From Armatimonadota bacterium (lineage in GTDB: Bacteria > Armatimonadota > Chthonomonadetes > Chthonomonadales > Chthonomonadaceae), in NCBI GenBank assembly GCA_028871815.1, contig JAGWMJ010000012.1, forward strand, positions 1-64,000: a stretch of 64,000 nucleotides of DNA, given 5' to 3'. The number at the start of each line of letters is the position of its first letter. Position 1 is the stretch's first letter. The translations under genes and the position numbers were made by a program. A model generated the notes under the pieces. The model was given only the letters and a program-made list of their open reading frames with translations. It did not search any database and had not been told where the DNA came from. Below, one piece after another: positions 39,030-47,321 of the stretch.

Positions 39030-40421
39030 CTACCGACCCGGCATCGCAAATGTGACCGGGCTTCTGCGACCGTGCGGCGAAACGGCGCGTACCCCGAATA
39101 GAAAATCGTCTTTGGATATGCCGCGGAGCGTAAAGCTGGTGGCGGAACCTGCCCAGCGCGCATGGGTCCACGTAGGAGAAGTTGTCTCGCGCCAGATTAC
39201 CTCATAACCCGTCGCGTTGCTACTACGCGACGGCTGCCACCGGAGGGTCGTATCGTTTGTGAGCGATCGCGCTACCACCCACGCCGCCGCCGGCGCCGCA
39301 GGCGCTCGCGCCAGGCCCGCGATGGATACTGCGTTGATTCGCGCTACGCGGGCCGCGTATCTCCAGTTTACAAACTGAGGCAGATCGCCGTACTGCACGC
39401 CATTCTCTATCCGGGGCGTCTGGTGTTGGTGATGAAAGTTCTCGTGCGATTCGGTGAACCGCACCGCCGGAAAGCCTTGATCCAGGTACGAGACCTGGTC
39501 TCCGCTGCGCAAGTAGCGATCCGTGCGAAAGATCAACTGCACCCTTGGTGACGGTACGTATACGTTCGCGGTTTCTGCTATCCAGCGCGCCAATTCGCGC
39601 GCAGGCGAGTCGCTTTCAGCCCCTGCATACCGGAGTATGGCTAGCTGGCGCGGGGTAAGGCGGCTCGCTATACCTTCCGCAAACAACCGTACGGTTCGCA
39701 TCCAGGGACCGTTTGCATAGATGGGATCTCCACCGATGATGTCGTTGTTCAACACTCCGTCGATACGAGCCCCAGCCAGCTTGAACCGGTGCGCCATGTA
39801 TGCAGATCCGTATAGGCCCTGCTCCTCGCCGGCAACGCACTCAAAAACGATGGTGGCACGAAAGTGGTATGGCGCCAGCGCCATCGCCGACTCCAGAGTG
39901 GCGGCAACGCCAGAGCCGTCGTCGTCCGCGCCGGGCGCGGTCGTGATGGAATCAACCGGGTTGCTGCAGATTGAGTCGTAATGCCCGCTCATTACATACG
40001 CCCGATCGTTCAGACCTTCATCGTCGCCATGCAGGATCGCAACGACGTCTGTCAGGGGCGTTGGCTCCGGAATACGCGGTCCTTGCGGCTGGATAAATCG
40101 CACCATCTCGACGCTCATCCGTCCATGCGCCAAACGCGCAGCCGCGCGGAACCTTGCGTAGATCCAGCGCGAAGCGGCGCCTATTCCAAACTTCGGGTCG
40201 TTCTGCGCGCTCATGGTGTTCCGAGTGCCGAAGCTCACCAGCGTTTCGATGTCGCGCCGGATGGATGCGGGCCGAATCGACCGTGCAATCTGCGCGACGT
40301 CGGCATCGATTCTGGAGCGTGGAGCACTCTGCGCAGCGGCGGGCGAGGCCGGCCCACCGATGGCGATAAGGGTGACGACCGCTGCCAGGGCGGATTGAGT
40401 AGTGCCGATTTCTGCGCGCAT
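39030..40421 (-). CDS. Secreted M28 zinc aminopeptidase with C-terminal fibronectin III-like domain
   Basis: 463 residues from the ATG at 40421 (AAGAGGAA upstream). A signal peptide ends near PAAAQSA (about 25-32). The M28 metal site is complete: His147 (GHYDS), Asp near 167 (ADDDGSG), Glu199/Glu200 (GEEQG) and Asp227 (NND), with a late His in SHENFHHQHQ. Residues about 375-463 form a fibronectin III-like domain (SSNATGYEVIWRE, FLFGVRAVSPHGRRS). It lies 26 bp after trpF and may be read from the same transcript. Confidence 0.88.
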   Translation of the reverse strand: MRAEIGTTQSALAAVVTLIAIGGPASPAAAQSAPRSRIDADVAQIARSIRPASIRRDIETLVSFGTRNTMSAQNDPKFGIGAASRWIYARFRAAARLAHGRMSVEMVRFIQPQGPRIPEPTPLTDVVAILHGDDEGLNDRAYVMSGHYDSICSNPVDSITTAPGADDDGSGVAATLESAMALAPYHFRATIVFECVAGEEQGLYGSAYMAHRFKLAGARIDGVLNNDIIGGDPIYANGPWMRTVRLFAEGIASRLTPRQLAILRYAGAESDSPARELARWIAETANVYVPSPRVQLIFRTDRYLRSGDQVSYLDQGFPAVRFTESHENFHHQHQTPRIENGVQYGDLPQFVNWRYAARVARINAVSIAGLARAPAAPAAAWVVARSLTNDTTLRWQPSRSSNATGYEVIWRETTSPTWTHARWAGSATSFTLRGISKDDFLFGVRAVSPHGRRSPVTFAMPGR

Positions 40422-40447
40422 AGCGTTCCTCTTCTTAGCGTTAGGGT

Positions 40448-41161
40448 TCAGGTTTGATCTGCGGCTCGCACCGCGCGCACAAAAGCGCGCAGCTTCTCGT
40501 GATCCTTGATGCCGGGACGATGCTCCACGCCCGACGAGACATCCACGGCGAACGGTCGTACCGTGCAAACTGCAGTCAGCACGTTTTCAGGGTTCAATCC
40601 ACCCGCCAGTATCAACGGCACGGACACGGCTTTGCGCACTAGTGCGGCAAGCGCCCAGTCCATAACCTTACCGGTTCCTCCCAGTTTGCCGGTGTCCCAA
40701 GAGTCCAGCAGTAACGCTTCCGGCTGAATATGGCCCGGCTGCGCCGGCTGTATCACAAAGTCGCCCTCGGGATCGGCGATCATCGTCTCCGTTACGTTGC
40801 CACGCTGAAGGTTCGCGGTGATCTCCTCAACGGTAGTTTCGTGCCGTACACGCAGCGCCAGTATGAGGCGGCGGCCCGCGCGCTGTGATTCGGCAAAGGT
40901 CTCCGAATAGGTTTGAAGCGTATCAAACTGGGGAAATCGATGGACTGGTACGTCCGCGGCATCACGGCACACAGCAACGCGCGCGACAAACGGCGGTAAG
41001 TCCGCAGCGACCTGGAGCGCATTATCATTCTCCAGCACGCACCGTGGCGATCCAGAAACCAGAATGAAACCCAACGCGTCGGCGCCTGCGTCAACGGCAG
41101 CTTGTGCGTCCGACAGATTCGTGATTCCACAGATCTTGATCCGGGTCCGGTGGGCTTGCAT
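40448..41161 (-). CDS. trpF: Phosphoribosylanthranilate isomerase
   Basis: Third step in the anthranilate-to-indole branch of tryptophan synthesis (PRA to CdRP). 237 residues: KICGITNLSDA at the N-terminus with the catalytic Cys, ILAGGLNPENV, and VDVSSGVEHRPGIKDHEKL at the end with the catalytic Asp, all conserved. A segment after the middle (DSWDTGKLGGTGKVMDW) matches the usual D-x-GGTG-x-FDW. It is cut off from trpC and trpD by a + strand helicase gene, so it needs its own promoter; a weak TATGGG lies upstream. Confidence 0.95.
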   Translation of the reverse strand: MQAHRTRIKICGITNLSDAQAAVDAGADALGFILVSGSPRCVLENDNALQVAADLPPFVARVAVCRDAADVPVHRFPQFDTLQTYSETFAESQRAGRRLILALRVRHETTVEEITANLQRGNVTETMIADPEGDFVIQPAQPGHIQPEALLLDSWDTGKLGGTGKVMDWALAALVRKAVSVPLILAGGLNPENVLTAVCTVRPFAVDVSSGVEHRPGIKDHEKLRAFVRAVRAADQT

Positions 41162-41245
41162 CGCTGCGACTATTCCCCATATCGTGCACCGGAACCTGCG
41201 CGCGGATCTCCGGTCGGGCAGGAACGCCGCGCTTTGGTTGCGAAC

Positions 41246-44200
41246 ATGGCGGTAATGCCGCGCGACAAACTAGAGCTGGGCCTGTACGATGAACTGGTCG
41301 ACACCCTGTTGGAGGCGGCCATTGTCGCGCTGCCAGACGGGCGCGACGCCGACTGGCCGGATTTGGATGCTGGCGAAAGGCACGTGGTACTGGCCGCGTA
41401 CGTTTCGCGCAGACTCGCCGATCGCCTCAAGCGCGACGCCAGCGACGCCGCGGCGCAAGCCCGATTGTGCAATCGGCTGCTTCAGCTGCTTACCGGTGAC
41501 GCCAGTGACGTGGACGCAGAGATCCCATCGAGTCCGAAGTTGTTGCGCGAAGTAGCTGAAGTGAACCCGGGACAAGTATTCCAGCCAACGCCCCGTCCCG
41601 TTACCGAGCTTCGCCATGCAGCGCTCTTCACCTCTCGCGGTGAACCCAATCTGCTCTCCGAACTGAAGCTGGAAATGATGTCCGCCGACCGTGTGGACCT
41701 GCTCTGCTCATTCATAAAGTCGAGCGGCGTCAACGCGCTCTACTCTGCGCTTGACCAGGCTGCCAAACGCGGAGCGGCCATTCGCGTGCTCACAACCAGC
41801 TACATGGGCGCTACGGACCCGGAAGCCGTTGCCCGGCTGGCAAAACTGAAAGGTATTCAGATCAGGGTCTCGTACCAGGTCGACAGCACGCGGCACCATG
41901 CGAAGGCTTGGGTATTTCACCGCAAAACCCACTTTGGCTCGGCTTGGGTCGGCTCAGCCAACGTGTCGACCTCGGCTCTAGCCGGCGGCCTGGAATGGGT
42001 GGTCAAACTCAGCCAGAACGAATTGCCGTACCTGTGGGAGAAGGTGACCGCAAGCTTCGACACGCTTTGGGAGGGCGTGGAGTTTGAGGAATACGACGCA
42101 AACTGCGATGGTGATACGCTCCGCGAAGCAGTGGCGCAACAGCGTGCTCATGCCGAAGGAAGCGCGCAGCATCTCTTTGATATTCGGCCATATCCCTTTC
42201 AGCAGGAGATTCTGGATCGCATCCAGGTAGAGAGGAAGGAACTCGGCCGCAATCGCCATCTGGTCGTGGCAGCCACAGGCACCGGTAAAACTATTATCGC
42301 GGCATTCGACTACAAGGCGTTTGCCGGTGCACAGAACCGGTGGCCCCGGATGATGTTCGTAGCCCATCGCAAAGAGATCCTCGAGCAGGCGCTTCAAACG
42401 TTCCGGCAGGTGTTGCGCGACCAGAACTTTGGCGAACTTGCCCTCGGTGGCTCAATACCCAGGCGTTGGGATCATATCTTCGTCTCGATCCAGCAGTGGA
42501 GTTCCTGGATGAAAGATAGTAATGACCCGTTGCTGCAGGGTGGGTGGGAGTACGTTGTGGTGGATGAGTTTCACCACGCGGAGGCACCGTCATACGTGTG
42601 CCTGTTGGAACGAATGGGCGCCGTGGAGCTTCTTGGCCTTACGGCAACACCGGAGCGCGCCGACCTACGGGACGTGCGGCGTTGGTTCAACGGTGAAATC
42701 AGTGCCGAATTGCGCCTCCCGGATGCTATCAATCGCGGCCTGCTTGCTCCGTTCAACTACTTCGGCATCACCGACTGTGTGAACTACTCACGGTTGAAGT
42801 GGGTGCGCGGCGGATACTCCGTCACCGACCTGGCGGATGCGCTGGAGGCCAACCGGGAGCGAGCGGCGCTGGTGATGGATGCTGTGAAACGGAGAGTCGT
42901 GAACCCGGATACCGTTCGGGGCATCGGCTTTTGCGTGGGAGTAAAACATGCAAAGCTAATGGCCGATTCGTTTCAGGAGGCTGGCGTCGAAGCGCGTGTG
43001 TTGACCGGTGAGACACCGGCCGCAGAGCGAGATCAGATCCGGCGTGAGCTCTCTGCTGGAAGCGTTCGGTATGTTTTTACGGTGGATGTTTACAATGAGG
43101 GCGTAGATATTCCCGACGTGGACACCGTGCTCTTTCTGCGGCCAACCGAAAGCCTTACCATCTTTTTGCAGCAGCTTGGGCGCGGATTGCGGCTCTGCTC
43201 AGGCAAGGAGTCGCTTACCGTATTGGATTTCGTTGGTCAGCAGCATACCAGGTTCCGCTACGACCGGCGGTTTGCCGCGCTGCTGACGGCGCCGGCCGAT
43301 TCGCTGACGGCGGAGATGGATCTCCAGTTCCCGCACCTGCCCGCGGGCTGTGCGATCGATCTGGAGCCGGTGGCGCGCGATCACATCGCGGCCAACATTA
43401 AAGCCGCGATCCGCCAATCTCTTCAGACAATGCAGGCTGCAGTGCGCGAGCACTGGGAGGATAAGGGATCGCACCAGCCCTACGCCAAGTTCCTGCACAC
43501 AAACAACCTTTGCCCAGATGACATCTACCGGCGAAATGTGAGTTACGCACAGTTATGTGCTGAGGCCAGCGGCGCAGCCTGGCCGGTCGACCCCGACACC
43601 AGTAGATTGACAAAGGGCTTGCGACGCATCGACCACATCAGCGGCGTGCGCCAGTTACGCGCTTTGCGTGGCGTTCTGGCTCGCGACGATGGCGTACCGG
43701 AAGAAGCGGCTCCGTATGTGCGGATGATGCACTATGCGTTGTGGGGCGATCCGCTGCCCATGGCTGGAGGGGAGCAGGACACCAGTGAGGCCGAGCTGTT
43801 GACTCGAACGGTCCGGAGTCTGCGACAGAAGCCGGCGATGCTGGAGGAGTTGGATAACCTCTTCGATTATCAGCTTCAATCGGTGAAAAGTCTCTCGATC
43901 CATCCGGATCCGAAGCTGCCGTTTGAGCTGCACGCGGCGTACTCGCGCGATGAAGTGCTGGCCGGACTGGGCGAGCACACGCTAGCCAGAAGGCGGCAGT
44001 TCCGTGAGGGAGTACTTTATCATAGCGAGCGCCATACCGATATCCTGTTTGTAACGATCTGCAAGTCGGAAGCCCGCCATTCGGCCTCCACCATGTACGA
44101 GGACTATGCGCTCAGCTCCACACTGTTTCACTGGCAAAGCCAGAGCACCACGTCCATCACTTCGCGGACCGGCGCGCGTTATACTGGCTGTGAACCAGGA

Positions 44201-44386
44201 TACGCGGTCCAACTGTTCGTCAGGGAGCGAGAGAAAACCGCCGATAAAACGGCGCCGTTTGTCTGGCTCGGACCGGCGACTTACGCAAAGCACGAGGGCA
44301 GCCGTCCGATAAGCATTCTGTGGAACCTCCAGTACCCAATTCCGGCTCGACTGCTCAAATGGATGCAGCGGTTCGGCATGGATTAG
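41246..44386 (+). CDS. PLD nuclease-SF2 helicase-DUF3427 protein, SauUSI-like type IV restriction candidate
   Basis: 1046 residues. A PLD-type nuclease segment is first (HAK at 218-220, GSAN at 236-239). The SF2 helicase follows: Walker A AATGTGKT (342-349), DEFHH (440-444), motif III LGLTATP, and motif VI QQLGRGLRL (642-650). The last 300 residues match DUF3427 (FHWQSQS, VQLFVRERE, PFVWLGPATY). This order is that of SauUSI, an ATP-dependent enzyme that cuts DNA with methylated cytosine. The gene opposes and separates trpC from trpF. I take the ATG at 41246, though 41255 is possible; a start at 41102 would overlap trpF. The antiphage role is inferred. Confidence 0.85.
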   Translation: MAVMPRDKLELGLYDELVDTLLEAAIVALPDGRDADWPDLDAGERHVVLAAYVSRRLADRLKRDASDAAAQARLCNRLLQLLTGDASDVDAEIPSSPKLLREVAEVNPGQVFQPTPRPVTELRHAALFTSRGEPNLLSELKLEMMSADRVDLLCSFIKSSGVNALYSALDQAAKRGAAIRVLTTSYMGATDPEAVARLAKLKGIQIRVSYQVDSTRHHAKAWVFHRKTHFGSAWVGSANVSTSALAGGLEWVVKLSQNELPYLWEKVTASFDTLWEGVEFEEYDANCDGDTLREAVAQQRAHAEGSAQHLFDIRPYPFQQEILDRIQVERKELGRNRHLVVAATGTGKTIIAAFDYKAFAGAQNRWPRMMFVAHRKEILEQALQTFRQVLRDQNFGELALGGSIPRRWDHIFVSIQQWSSWMKDSNDPLLQGGWEYVVVDEFHHAEAPSYVCLLERMGAVELLGLTATPERADLRDVRRWFNGEISAELRLPDAINRGLLAPFNYFGITDCVNYSRLKWVRGGYSVTDLADALEANRERAALVMDAVKRRVVNPDTVRGIGFCVGVKHAKLMADSFQEAGVEARVLTGETPAAERDQIRRELSAGSVRYVFTVDVYNEGVDIPDVDTVLFLRPTESLTIFLQQLGRGLRLCSGKESLTVLDFVGQQHTRFRYDRRFAALLTAPADSLTAEMDLQFPHLPAGCAIDLEPVARDHIAANIKAAIRQSLQTMQAAVREHWEDKGSHQPYAKFLHTNNLCPDDIYRRNVSYAQLCAEASGAAWPVDPDTSRLTKGLRRIDHISGVRQLRALRGVLARDDGVPEEAAPYVRMMHYALWGDPLPMAGGEQDTSEAELLTRTVRSLRQKPAMLEELDNLFDYQLQSVKSLSIHPDPKLPFELHAAYSRDEVLAGLGEHTLARRRQFREGVLYHSERHTDILFVTICKSEARHSASTMYEDYALSSTLFHWQSQSTTSITSRTGARYTGCEPGYAVQLFVREREKTADKTAPFVWLGPATYAKHEGSRPISILWNLQYPIPARLLKWMQRFGMD

Positions 44387-44432
44387 GCCCATCTGACGGA
44401 GCCGCCATCCAGCAGCCGCCATCGACCCGCCG

Positions 44433-45227: not shown

Positions 45228-46312
45228 GGCACGTCGCTATCTGCCTTGTGCACACGGCCGAACGCTGCTAACTGTTCCAGTTTCTCCCAGGCTGCACCCG
45301 ACTCCATAACGGCCATGGCGGCCTCCGTGGCTTCGGGCCATGAGGAAGCCAGGTCGCAGAGGCGCAAGCACGCTGCGGCGTTTACGGCCACCAGTTCCCG
45401 CTGTGCCGCTACGGCCGGTGTCGGAGCTGCTCCCATCTGCAGCACCTTCTGAACGATCTGAGCATTCTCTTCGGCCGACCTCGCCGGCGCCAGCAACTGC
45501 AGCGGCGGTGGCGACCCCGCAAGTGCCAGCGCCTCGCGCGTTAGTGTGTACTGCCGGATATCGCCATCGCGTAGTTCATGAACCTGGGTAGGACCGAATG
45601 AAGATATCTCGTCCAGCCCATCTTCTCCGTGAACAACGATGGCTCTATCGATGCCCAACTCTTTTAACGCTGCAATCGCCAACCCACAAAGCGACGAATC
45701 GTATACACCCATCAACTGCAGTGAAGCGCCCGCGGGGTTCGTTAGCGGGCCAATCAGATTGAAGATCGTGCGGATGCCAAGCTCCCGGCGCGGCCCGGCT
45801 ACGGCCCTGGTTGCCGGGTGGTAGGCCGGTGCAAAAAGAAAGCCGATGCCGATTGCATCGATACAACTAGCGGTGTCACCGGGCGCCATCTGTATGTTTA
45901 CGCCCAGTGCTTCCAACACATCCGCGCTGCCGCAAATGCCCGTTGCGGCCCGATTGCCGTGCTTCGCGACGGTGGCGCCGGCAGCGGCCGCCACCAGCGC
46001 AGCACATGTTGAAACGTTGAACACGCGGCACTTCGCGCCGCCGGTTCCACATGTATCCAGCAGCGGCTGTCGATGCGGGCGGATGGTTACCGCTCGCTGA
46101 CGCATCGCGTCCACAAAGCCGGCTGCGATCTGTGGTGACTCGCCACTTACCCGCAGCGCCGTCAGCAGGCCGCCAATCTGGCTTGCGGTTGCGCCGCCAT
46201 CCATGAGCAGGCCGGCGAGAGCACGGGCATCACTCCGTTCGAGTGGCGGGCCCTCAATGAGCCGCTGCAGGTAGTTGCCGGCGTCGAGGTCAGCGGGCAG
46301 GGCGACGTCCAC
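45224..46312 (-). CDS. trpD: Anthranilate phosphoribosyltransferase
   Basis: Transfers phosphoribose from PRPP to anthranilate. 362 residues with the family motifs LDTCGTGGAKCRVFNVST, KHGNRAATGICGSADVLEALG, and IFNLIGPLTNPA. The C-terminal third is somewhat longer and more variable. Its ATG overlaps the end of the DUF1444 gene by 23 bp and its stop overlaps trpC by 4 bp, so the three are probably co-transcribed. Confidence 0.95.
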   Translation of the reverse strand: MDVALPADLDAGNYLQRLIEGPPLERSDARALAGLLMDGGATASQIGGLLTALRVSGESPQIAAGFVDAMRQRAVTIRPHRQPLLDTCGTGGAKCRVFNVSTCAALVAAAAGATVAKHGNRAATGICGSADVLEALGVNIQMAPGDTASCIDAIGIGFLFAPAYHPATRAVAGPRRELGIRTIFNLIGPLTNPAGASLQLMGVYDSSLCGLAIAALKELGIDRAIVVHGEDGLDEISSFGPTQVHELRDGDIRQYTLTREALALAGSPPPLQLLAPARSAEENAQIVQKVLQMGAAPTPAVAAQRELVAVNAAACLRLCDLASSWPEATEAAMAVMESGAAWEKLEQLAAFGRVHKADSDVP

Positions 46313-47321
46313 CCACTTCGCTGTCGGTACCGGTTGGCTCGGTCATACCATACCAACTGTTCAGGTCACGCGGACCAGTTGGTTCGGCTGCCGCAGCCGG
46401 CGCCGCGACGCGTGTTGGAGCCTGCGGCGCGAACACCGACTGCTTATCCAGAGTGACGCCATCACCCTGCGGGTTATACACGGTAACCTGGCCGCCGGTA
46501 GTGTTGATATTCACGTAGAACAGGTCCGAAGTGAGAGCGTACGGCAACTGCTTGAAGTTTCGATTTGATCCCTGAACCGAGGCGATCAGGCCCGGTTCAT
46601 CTGCCCGTACCGCTACCATCCGATTGCGGTTGGGAATGGCAAAAACAAAATCGCCCTCGAGCCTCATACCGATGTGGTCGCGAAACCGCTCCATCAAGCC
46701 CCAGGTCGCCGTCATGTGGTCACCTTCAAAAACAAGCCCAACCACCTCGCTGCCCGTAGCATGCTTCGATGCTCCGCCGGTATAGAGCTCTCGCGTCACG
46801 TTGGGAAAGCTCATCATATTCATGTTGCTCATGGCCTCTGCCAGCGCCGTTTCAAAGGAGACATCCCAGGACTCAAGCTGTAGTTGAGTTACGGCGATGA
46901 GCGTGCCGGTAATCTCGCGCATGACAATTACGCCAAGCTGCCCGATGAACGGTTCAAACGGAAGGTTGTCGCCGGTTTTCGCCATCGACTCCGAGGCCTG
47001 CACGATCGCGTCGTTCGGCTTTAGCATGGGCCGGAGCAGCGTTCTGGCTTCGGACCAACTGTGGTCTGGTGGCCGCGTGATCAACGTGTGCATCCAGGCA
47101 TCCACAATTGCGTCACGGTCACCGGGATTCCGGCTGTACTCCGCATAAAGCTGGCGCAGGTTGCACGCTTGCGCCGTGCCATCCACGGTGAGTACGAATC
47201 CCGTGTCGCTGGGTTCTATCTTTGAACCGGGAAGTCGCCTTCGCACGGTAAGCCGCACATGATCCCTGAAGGCGCCGTACGGCATAGCTTTCTGCTTGGT
47301 GAATATGCCCAGAAGCTTCAT
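46290..47321 (-). CDS. DUF1444 (YtpQ-like) protein
   Basis: 343 residues that resemble YtpQ of Bacillus subtilis (DUF1444). Shared layout: a charged N-terminal helix, VIDAWM-type helix, then ESWDVSFETALAEAMSNM and a core with VGLVFEGDHMTATWGL, EGDFVFAIPNRNRMVAV. The last 60 residues are a Pro/Ala-rich tail that overlaps the start of trpD. AGAGGCGGG precedes the ATG. The function of DUF1444 is not known. The match is by eye to remembered family patterns. Confidence 0.7.
   Translation of the reverse strand: MKLLGIFTKQKAMPYGAFRDHVRLTVRRRLPGSKIEPSDTGFVLTVDGTAQACNLRQLYAEYSRNPGDRDAIVDAWMHTLITRPPDHSWSEARTLLRPMLKPNDAIVQASESMAKTGDNLPFEPFIGQLGVIVMREITGTLIAVTQLQLESWDVSFETALAEAMSNMNMMSFPNVTRELYTGGASKHATGSEVVGLVFEGDHMTATWGLMERFRDHIGMRLEGDFVFAIPNRNRMVAVRADEPGLIASVQGSNRNFKQLPYALTSDLFYVNINTTGGQVTVYNPQGDGVTLDKQSVFAPQAPTRVAAPAAAAEPTGPRDLNSWYGMTEPTGTDSEVGGRRPAR

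What the first reader, a model, noticed from the sequence alone, without database searches (positions are those of the whole stretch)
41246..44386. SauUSI-like restriction enzyme splits the tryptophan operon
A 1046-residue PLD-SF2 helicase-DUF3427 protein lies on the + strand between trpC and trpF, which are on the - strand. The architecture is that of SauUSI, a type IV enzyme that cuts 5-methylcytosine DNA. It is a single-gene defence system in a biosynthetic operon, with a 46-bp gap to trpC and an 84-bp gap to trpF. This suggests insertion into an ancestral trpDCF. The seen part is domain order and placement; the antiviral role and insertion are inferred.
Basis: partly seen in the sequence, partly recalled or inferred. 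Interest (0 to 1): 0.75.

Follow-up and report, generated by a model that had tools for sequence, protein, structure and literature searches.

The report
SauUSI-type restriction gene between trpC, trpF
A bacterium of the phylum Armatimonadota carries a single-gene enzyme that very probably cuts DNA bearing modified cytosines, inserted backwards between two neighbouring tryptophan-synthesis genes; the enzyme type is known, but this host should put the same kind of mark on its own DNA, so the enzyme's exact target is an open and testable question.

Summary
ORF 41246-44386 (+, 1046 aa) is a full-length SauUSI-family protein: PLD nuclease, SF2 translocase, helical coupler and an SRA-fold target domain (DUF3427). 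PADLOC's type IV model scores 711 bits; the whole-chain match among solved structures is SauUSI (7clg); the C-terminal domain folds like 5mC/5hmC-binding SRA domains. Key nuclease, ATPase and two base-pocket residues are kept. Insertion is well supported: same-family genomes G006 and G013 keep trpF-trpC-trpD-343-aa-gene with the downstream M28 peptidase gene and nothing between trpF and trpC, and trpC-trpF neighbour each other throughout the sister families. Two corrections. Second, the host encodes an intact EcoRII-type system (REase, Dcm-like methyltransferase, Vsr) predicted to make Cm5CWGG, a known SauUSI substrate. Strict SauUSI specificity would destroy the host, so specificity has probably shifted, or one system is silent. 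Homologues sit alone in unrelated contexts; the trp location looks incidental. New member of a known kind.

The parts
41246..44386 (+). SauUSI-family ATP-dependent modification-dependent restriction endonuclease, 1046 aa (an alternative ATG at 41255 would give 1043 aa)
   Evidence: PADLOC mREase_IV 711 bits; A1 profile hits SauUSI 7clg 515 bits over chain 30-921; model matches 7clg_A over the chain, Foldseek E 1.4e-44
41246..41596 (+). N-terminal helical extension, residues 1-117; SauUSI itself has only about 30 residues before the matching part; function unknown
   Evidence: helices 13-28, 45-63, 68-83, 97-104 at low confidence; present in the homologues of A1
41597..42115 (+). PLD nuclease domain, about residues 118-290
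   Evidence: PLDc_2 162-275
41897..41905 (+). Catalytic HxK (H218, K220); N239 and E250 also invariant
   Evidence: invariant in the 28- and 45-sequence alignments; aligned with SauUSI H119/K121
42182..43276 (+). SF2 helicase-like ATPase, residues 313-677; Walker A ATGTGKT 343-349, DEFHH 440-444, QQLGRGLR motif VI
   Evidence: ResIII and Helicase_C; invariant motifs
43313..43900 (+). Helical coupler, residues 690-885
   Evidence: mostly helical in the model; aligned with SauUSI 618-805
43901..44383 (+). Target recognition domain with SRA fold (C-terminal part of DUF3427), residues 886-1046; D953 and W963 match SauUSI D858 and W868
   Evidence: domain model pLDDT 91; VIA Z 13.2 to 7clg TRD, 8.5-9.3 to SUVH5/SUVH6/AbaSI/KRYPTONITE
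41162..41245 (.). 84-bp divergent gap between the starts of trpF (-) and the restriction gene (+); any separate promoters for the two must lie here or inside the genes
   Evidence: no consensus promoter above chance; no CCWGG site
44387..44432 (.). 46-bp convergent gap between the restriction gene and trpC
   Evidence: no terminator above chance; no target-site duplication found
40448..41161 (-). trpF, phosphoribosylanthranilate isomerase
   Evidence: PF00697 100 bits
44433..45227 (-). trpC, indole-3-glycerol phosphate synthase
   Evidence: PF00218 279 bits
45224..46312 (-). trpD, anthranilate phosphoribosyltransferase
   Evidence: TIGR01245 362 bits
46290..47321 (-). Conserved 343-aa protein of unknown function, next to trpD in most relatives of the family; part of the syntenic frame
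   Evidence: no Pfam match; same place in G001-G006, G008, G013
39030..40568 (-). M28 peptidase ORF (true start probably near 40424), downstream of trpF here and in G006 and G013; part of the syntenic frame
   Evidence: PF04389; synteny

Best explanation
The gene encodes a single-chain, ATP-driven, modification-dependent (type IV) restriction enzyme of the SauUSI family. It most likely works like SauUSI: the C-terminal SRA domain flips out a modified cytosine in incoming DNA, binding switches on the SF2 motor, the protein moves along the duplex, and paired PLD domains of a dimer cut both strands. It entered a trpD-trpC-trpF run of an ancestral Armatimonadota genome as a lone gene in the opposite orientation, long enough ago to have taken on the host's base composition. 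The trp site is incidental. Because the host's own EcoRII-type methyltransferase should make Cm5CWGG, the enzyme probably does not cut that context: its target differs from SauUSI's S5mCNGS. Shown: domain order, conserved active-site residues, SRA fold (by model), insertion polarity, presence of the host 5mC system genes. Inferred: cleavage, dimerisation, translocation, antiviral role, target.
For: Full-length type IV model match. Profile of 28 sequences aligns to SauUSI 30-921. Structure model pLDDT 82 with SauUSI as best Foldseek match. TRD alone pLDDT 91; the best 45 entries are SRA-type structures, chiefly modified-cytosine binders and restriction enzymes, Z 13.2 to SauUSI's TRD. H218, K220, N239, E250 and Walker A and DEFHH residues invariant or nearly so. 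SauUSI pocket residues D858, W868 and F841 kept as D953, W963, F935, and I842 replaced by V936; Y831 and M829 differ (V923, E921). Empty site: G006 and G013 have M28-trpF-trpC-trpD-343aa with nothing between trpF and trpC; G010 and G005 have adjacent trpC-trpF; in the sister families f2 and f3 trpC and trpF neighbour each other in 14 of 14 genomes, 13 within about 200 bp. Homologues stand alone in unrelated contexts. GC 59.6%, GC3 69% and codon usage like the host's genes. Intact EcoRII-type REase, Dcm-like MTase and Vsr in the same genome. Three of the four Armatimonadota genomes with strong EcoRII-C matches also carry a SauUSI-family gene (31 of 291 genomes do), hypergeometric P 0.004, post hoc.
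Against: No activity data. SauUSI's HxK(x)4E motif is not complete (H225 in place of E126), although that position varies across the family. Two of six modelled pocket residues differ, so even the modified base is not certain. The EcoRII-type MTase is predicted from homology only and may be silent; then no specificity change would be needed. The branch leading to this protein is long and its place in the tree unresolved.
Confidence: 0.8

Rival explanations
1. The enzyme keeps SauUSI's S5mCNGS specificity but is kept silent in this host, for example by methylation of its promoter or by antisense transcription from trpDC, as PcaRCII is silenced by the PcaRCI methyltransferase in Pectobacterium (PMC8989522).
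For: The host should carry Cm5CWGG; silencing of a methylation-dependent nuclease by a Dcm-type MTase is described (PMC8989522). trpDC read-through would run antisense along the whole gene, with no terminator above chance in between.
Against: No CCWGG site lies in the 84-bp gap; the nearest on the trpF side is at 41011, 235 bp from the start codon. SauUSI-family genes coexist with EcoRII-type systems in three genomes from two families, which a shared tolerance explains more simply than repeated silencing.
Confidence: 0.2
2. No insertion: the gene was in the trpC-trpF interval in the family ancestor and was lost cleanly in the others, or trpF was relocated next to the gene.
For: Several relatives have trpF elsewhere, some of them without the gene.
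Against: Outgroup families f2 and f3 have neighbouring trpC-trpF in 14 of 14 genomes; G006 and G013 match the window on both sides (M28 and trpF, trpC and trpD) without the gene. One gain is needed against many precise losses. The trpC-trpF gaps of relatives are too short for remnants.
Confidence: 0.04
3. A noncontiguous operon: trpDC and trpF are still co-transcribed through the antisense restriction gene, so that tryptophan supply and restriction regulate each other.
For: The gene order fits the published architecture (menE-menC-MW1733-ytkD in S. aureus, PMC7154746); no terminator above chance.
Against: No transcript data. The 84-bp divergent gap can hold a promoter for trpF. trp genes of this genome are scattered anyway, so co-transcription is not required.
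Confidence: 0.12
4. A helicase of DNA repair (RadD-like) rather than a restriction enzyme.
For: The ATPase domain is close to RadD: 104 bits to the RadD model, VIA Z 31 over 343 residues.
Against: RadD's equivalog cut-off (720 bits) is missed by far; the protein also has an intact PLD nuclease and an SRA domain, which match SauUSI, not RadD.
Confidence: 0.03

Closest known systems
SauUSI of Staphylococcus aureus (PDB 7clg, PMC7913695)
   Same: Domain order PLD nuclease, SF2 ATPase, coupler, SRA-type TRD; catalytic H and K; Walker A and DExH; pocket D858 and W868; single gene without its own methyltransferase
   Different: About 22-27% identity; about 90 extra N-terminal residues; Y831 to V923, M829 to E921, E126 to H225; found with a host system predicted to make Cm5CWGG, a SauUSI substrate
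PADLOC mREase_IV PDLC03659 family (long DUF3427 proteins, wide in Bacillota, Actinomycetota, Planctomycetota, archaea)
   Same: Full-length match 117-1036, 711 bits; same extra N-terminal part as in the homologues
   Different: Only the place between trpC and trpF and the long, isolated branch
RadD helicase
   Same: SF2 core
   Different: No PLD, no SRA domain
CglI / NgoAVII PLD-SF2 restriction systems
   Same: PLD nuclease plus SF2 ATPase
   Different: Those are multi-subunit with B3 target domains (PMC7913695); here one chain with an SRA domain
Noncontiguous operon (S. aureus men locus, PMC7154746)
   Same: Gene on the opposite strand between genes of one pathway
   Different: Co-transcription not shown here

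Membership tests
SauUSI-type type IV restriction enzyme | N-terminal PLD nuclease with HxK and downstream N and E | tested here: met
   H218, K220, N239, E250 invariant; PLDc_2
SauUSI-type type IV restriction enzyme | Acidic residue completing HxK(x)4E as given for SauUSI | tested here: not met
   H225 at that position; the position varies across the 77 wider relatives listed, so it is not a constant feature of the family
SauUSI-type type IV restriction enzyme | SF2 ATPase with motifs I, II and VI | tested here: met
   ATGTGKT, DEFHH, QQLGRGLR
SauUSI-type type IV restriction enzyme | Helical coupler followed by C-terminal SRA-fold domain | tested here: met
SauUSI-type type IV restriction enzyme | Modified-cytosine pocket residues of SauUSI | tested here: inconclusive
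   D858, W868, F841 kept, I842 conservative (V936); Y831 and M829 changed
SauUSI-type type IV restriction enzyme | No cognate methyltransferase next to it | tested here: met
   neighbours are trpF and trpC
SauUSI-type type IV restriction enzyme | Cuts S5mCNGS DNA with ATP | not testable with these tools
   needs enzyme; the host's EcoRII-type system argues against cutting of Cm5CWGG
SauUSI-type type IV restriction enzyme | Homodimer through the PLD domains | not testable with these tools
   only a monomer was modelled
Noncontiguous operon | Opposite-strand gene within a gene run of one pathway | tested here: met
Noncontiguous operon | Flanking genes co-transcribed through the antisense gene | not testable with these tools
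   no RNA data; terminator scan at chance level

The most novel reading that the evidence does not exclude
A SauUSI-family enzyme lives with an active EcoRII-type 5mC system because its SRA pocket reads a different mark or context, and its gene, lying antisense inside trpDC-trpF, is tied to tryptophan gene transcription as a noncontiguous operon.
Probability: 0.07. Interest if true: 0.6.

Novelty: new member of a known kind. Interest (0 to 1): 0.3.

Why it matters
The enzyme type is known and its homologues are widespread, so the find by itself is ordinary. Two points give it some value. It is a clean case of a lone defence gene entering a biosynthetic gene run, in a phylum that includes a species already noted for scattered amino-acid operons (Chthonomonas calidirosea, PMC4959169). 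It also sets a direct test: members of the SauUSI family occur in genomes that should methylate Cm5CWGG, so the S5mCNGS rule from S. aureus probably does not extend to the whole family.

Tried and rejected
Link with tryptophan genes: of 110 SauUSI-family loci from relatives and other phyla only one (G005) has a trp gene (trpE) nearby, so no functional link is claimed. Mutual exclusion of SauUSI-family genes and C5 methyltransferases: 11 of 31 genomes with versus 103 of 260 without, Fisher P 0.70; none found. Recent foreign origin by composition: rejected, GC and codon usage match the host. Target-site duplication or inverted repeats at the edges: none beyond chance. Avoidance of CCWGG in the window: none, observed 168 against about 171 expected. 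Promoter and terminator scans: at chance level. tRNA or known RNA at the site: none. Tree of the enzyme: the window branch is long and unplaced, so donor not identified. Trees of trpC, trpD, trpF: mostly unresolved. The first single-sequence scan of genome contigs found nothing.

Full report
WHAT IS THERE. The ORF at 41246-44386 codes for 1046 residues with PLD, SF2 helicase and DUF3427 matches in that order. PADLOC's type IV model covers residues 117-1036 with 711 bits. trpF lies 84 bp away on one side (divergent), trpC 46 bp away on the other (convergent).

ORGANISM. The genome is a member of the Armatimonadota: the contig of G223, a genome of the same phylum, is titled Armatimonadetes bacterium. 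The complete family member G002 has the size of Chthonomonas calidirosea (3.44 Mb; identification from memory), a species reported to have scattered tryptophan, histidine and purine genes (PMC4959169).

FAMILY. A profile of 28 sequences of the phylum aligns with SauUSI (7clg) from residue 30 to 921, target domain included. The structure model (pLDDT 82) has SauUSI as its best Foldseek match and as the whole-chain match in the second look, where RadD scores higher over the ATPase alone. Folded alone (pLDDT 91), the last 165 residues match SauUSI's target domain at Z 13.2. The next 44 entries are all SRA-type structures, chiefly 5mC and 5hmC binders such as SUVH5, SUVH6, AbaSI and PvuRts1I. So the DUF3427 end is, by model, an SRA domain here too.

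ACTIVE SITES. H218, K220, N239 and E250 are invariant, and Walker A 343-349 and DEFHH 440-444 invariant or nearly so, in two broad alignments. From the SauUSI paper's pocket (PMC7913695), D858, W868 and F841 are kept, I842 is V936, but Y831 is V923 and M829 is E921 (alignment). V923 is typical of this wider family.

INSERTION. In G006 and G013, same family, the order M28 peptidase - trpF - trpC - trpD - 343-aa gene is that of the window without the restriction gene. In G013 other genes lie between the peptidase and trpF. Gaps between trpC and trpF in relatives are short, mostly well under 100 bp, about 210 bp in G005. In the sister families f2 and f3 trpC and trpF are neighbours in all 14 genomes, 13 of them within about 200 bp, G028 with 0.6-0.8 kb between. 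G010 and G005 also have them adjacent. The restriction gene therefore entered on the branch of this genus. Some relatives (G001, G002, G003, G004, G008, G015) have trpF elsewhere. G002, G003 and G015 lack the restriction gene, so loss of trpC-trpF linkage has other causes as well. No duplication or inverted repeat marks the edges, and composition is that of the host: the event is probably old.

CONTEXT OF HOMOLOGUES. Homologues (E below 1e-60) are found in 31 of 291 genomes of the phylum and in many phyla. They stand mostly alone among unrelated genes. Only G005's copy has a trp gene (trpE) beside it, in 110 loci. The gene behaves as a lone, mobile defence gene; the trp site says nothing about its function.

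SELF-METHYLATION. The same genome has, at C1:658-662 kb, a complete EcoRII-type system: a REase matching EcoRII over its whole length (351 bits, both EcoRII domains), a C5 methyltransferase with best solved relatives 3lx6 and 3me5 (344 bits; NCBIfam dcm models), and Vsr. A second C5 methyltransferase with Vsr is at C2:88 kb. EcoRII and Dcm act on CCWGG (general knowledge), and SauUSI cuts Dcm-modified Cm5CWGG (PMC3874153). The window alone has 168 CCWGG sites. An active enzyme with SauUSI's specificity would cut the host. Of the four genomes of the phylum with strong EcoRII-C matches, three carry a SauUSI-family gene (P 0.004, small and post hoc). Either the Armatimonadota enzymes read another context or mark, as McrBC tolerates Dcm in E. 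coli (general knowledge), or one of the systems is silent, as in Pectobacterium (PMC8989522). I favour shifted specificity.

EXPRESSION. The layout fits a noncontiguous operon (PMC7154746), but nothing here shows co-transcription, and promoter and terminator scans are at chance level.

VERDICT. A real, well-preserved SauUSI-family gene, inserted between trpC and trpF in one genus; new member of a known kind. The specificity question is the useful part.

Noticed in passing
L235 1655-4692 (G000:C1:658654-661691): Complete EcoRII-type R-M system (REase, Vsr, Dcm-like MTase) in the window's genome.
   Followed up: yes
L236 2968-5462 (G000:C2): Second C5 methyltransferase with Vsr and a 362-aa neighbour without any Pfam match, possibly its restriction enzyme; a putative transposase gene lies next to it.
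   Followed up: partly
L105 5951-7051, L106 10456-11508, L107 6539-7636, L108 1-686: An APH-family phosphotransferase gene (PF01636) lies directly beside the SauUSI homologue, upstream and on the same strand, in four genomes of the family (G011, G001, G008, G014); possible two-gene unit.
   Followed up: partly
L103 9640-14520: In G005 the SauUSI homologue lies directly upstream of trpE, about 36 kb from trpDCF on the same contig.
   Followed up: partly
window 46290-47321: 343-aa protein without Pfam match, conserved next to trpD across the family.
   Followed up: no
window 40448-41161: trpF is about 25 residues longer than relatives, with an insertion near residues 118-145.
   Followed up: no
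L104 8552-10163 and L091 11775-13001: A site-specific DNA methyltransferase-like gene with a neighbour lies beside the SauUSI homologue in G004, and a related pair lies near trpDC in G008.
   Followed up: no
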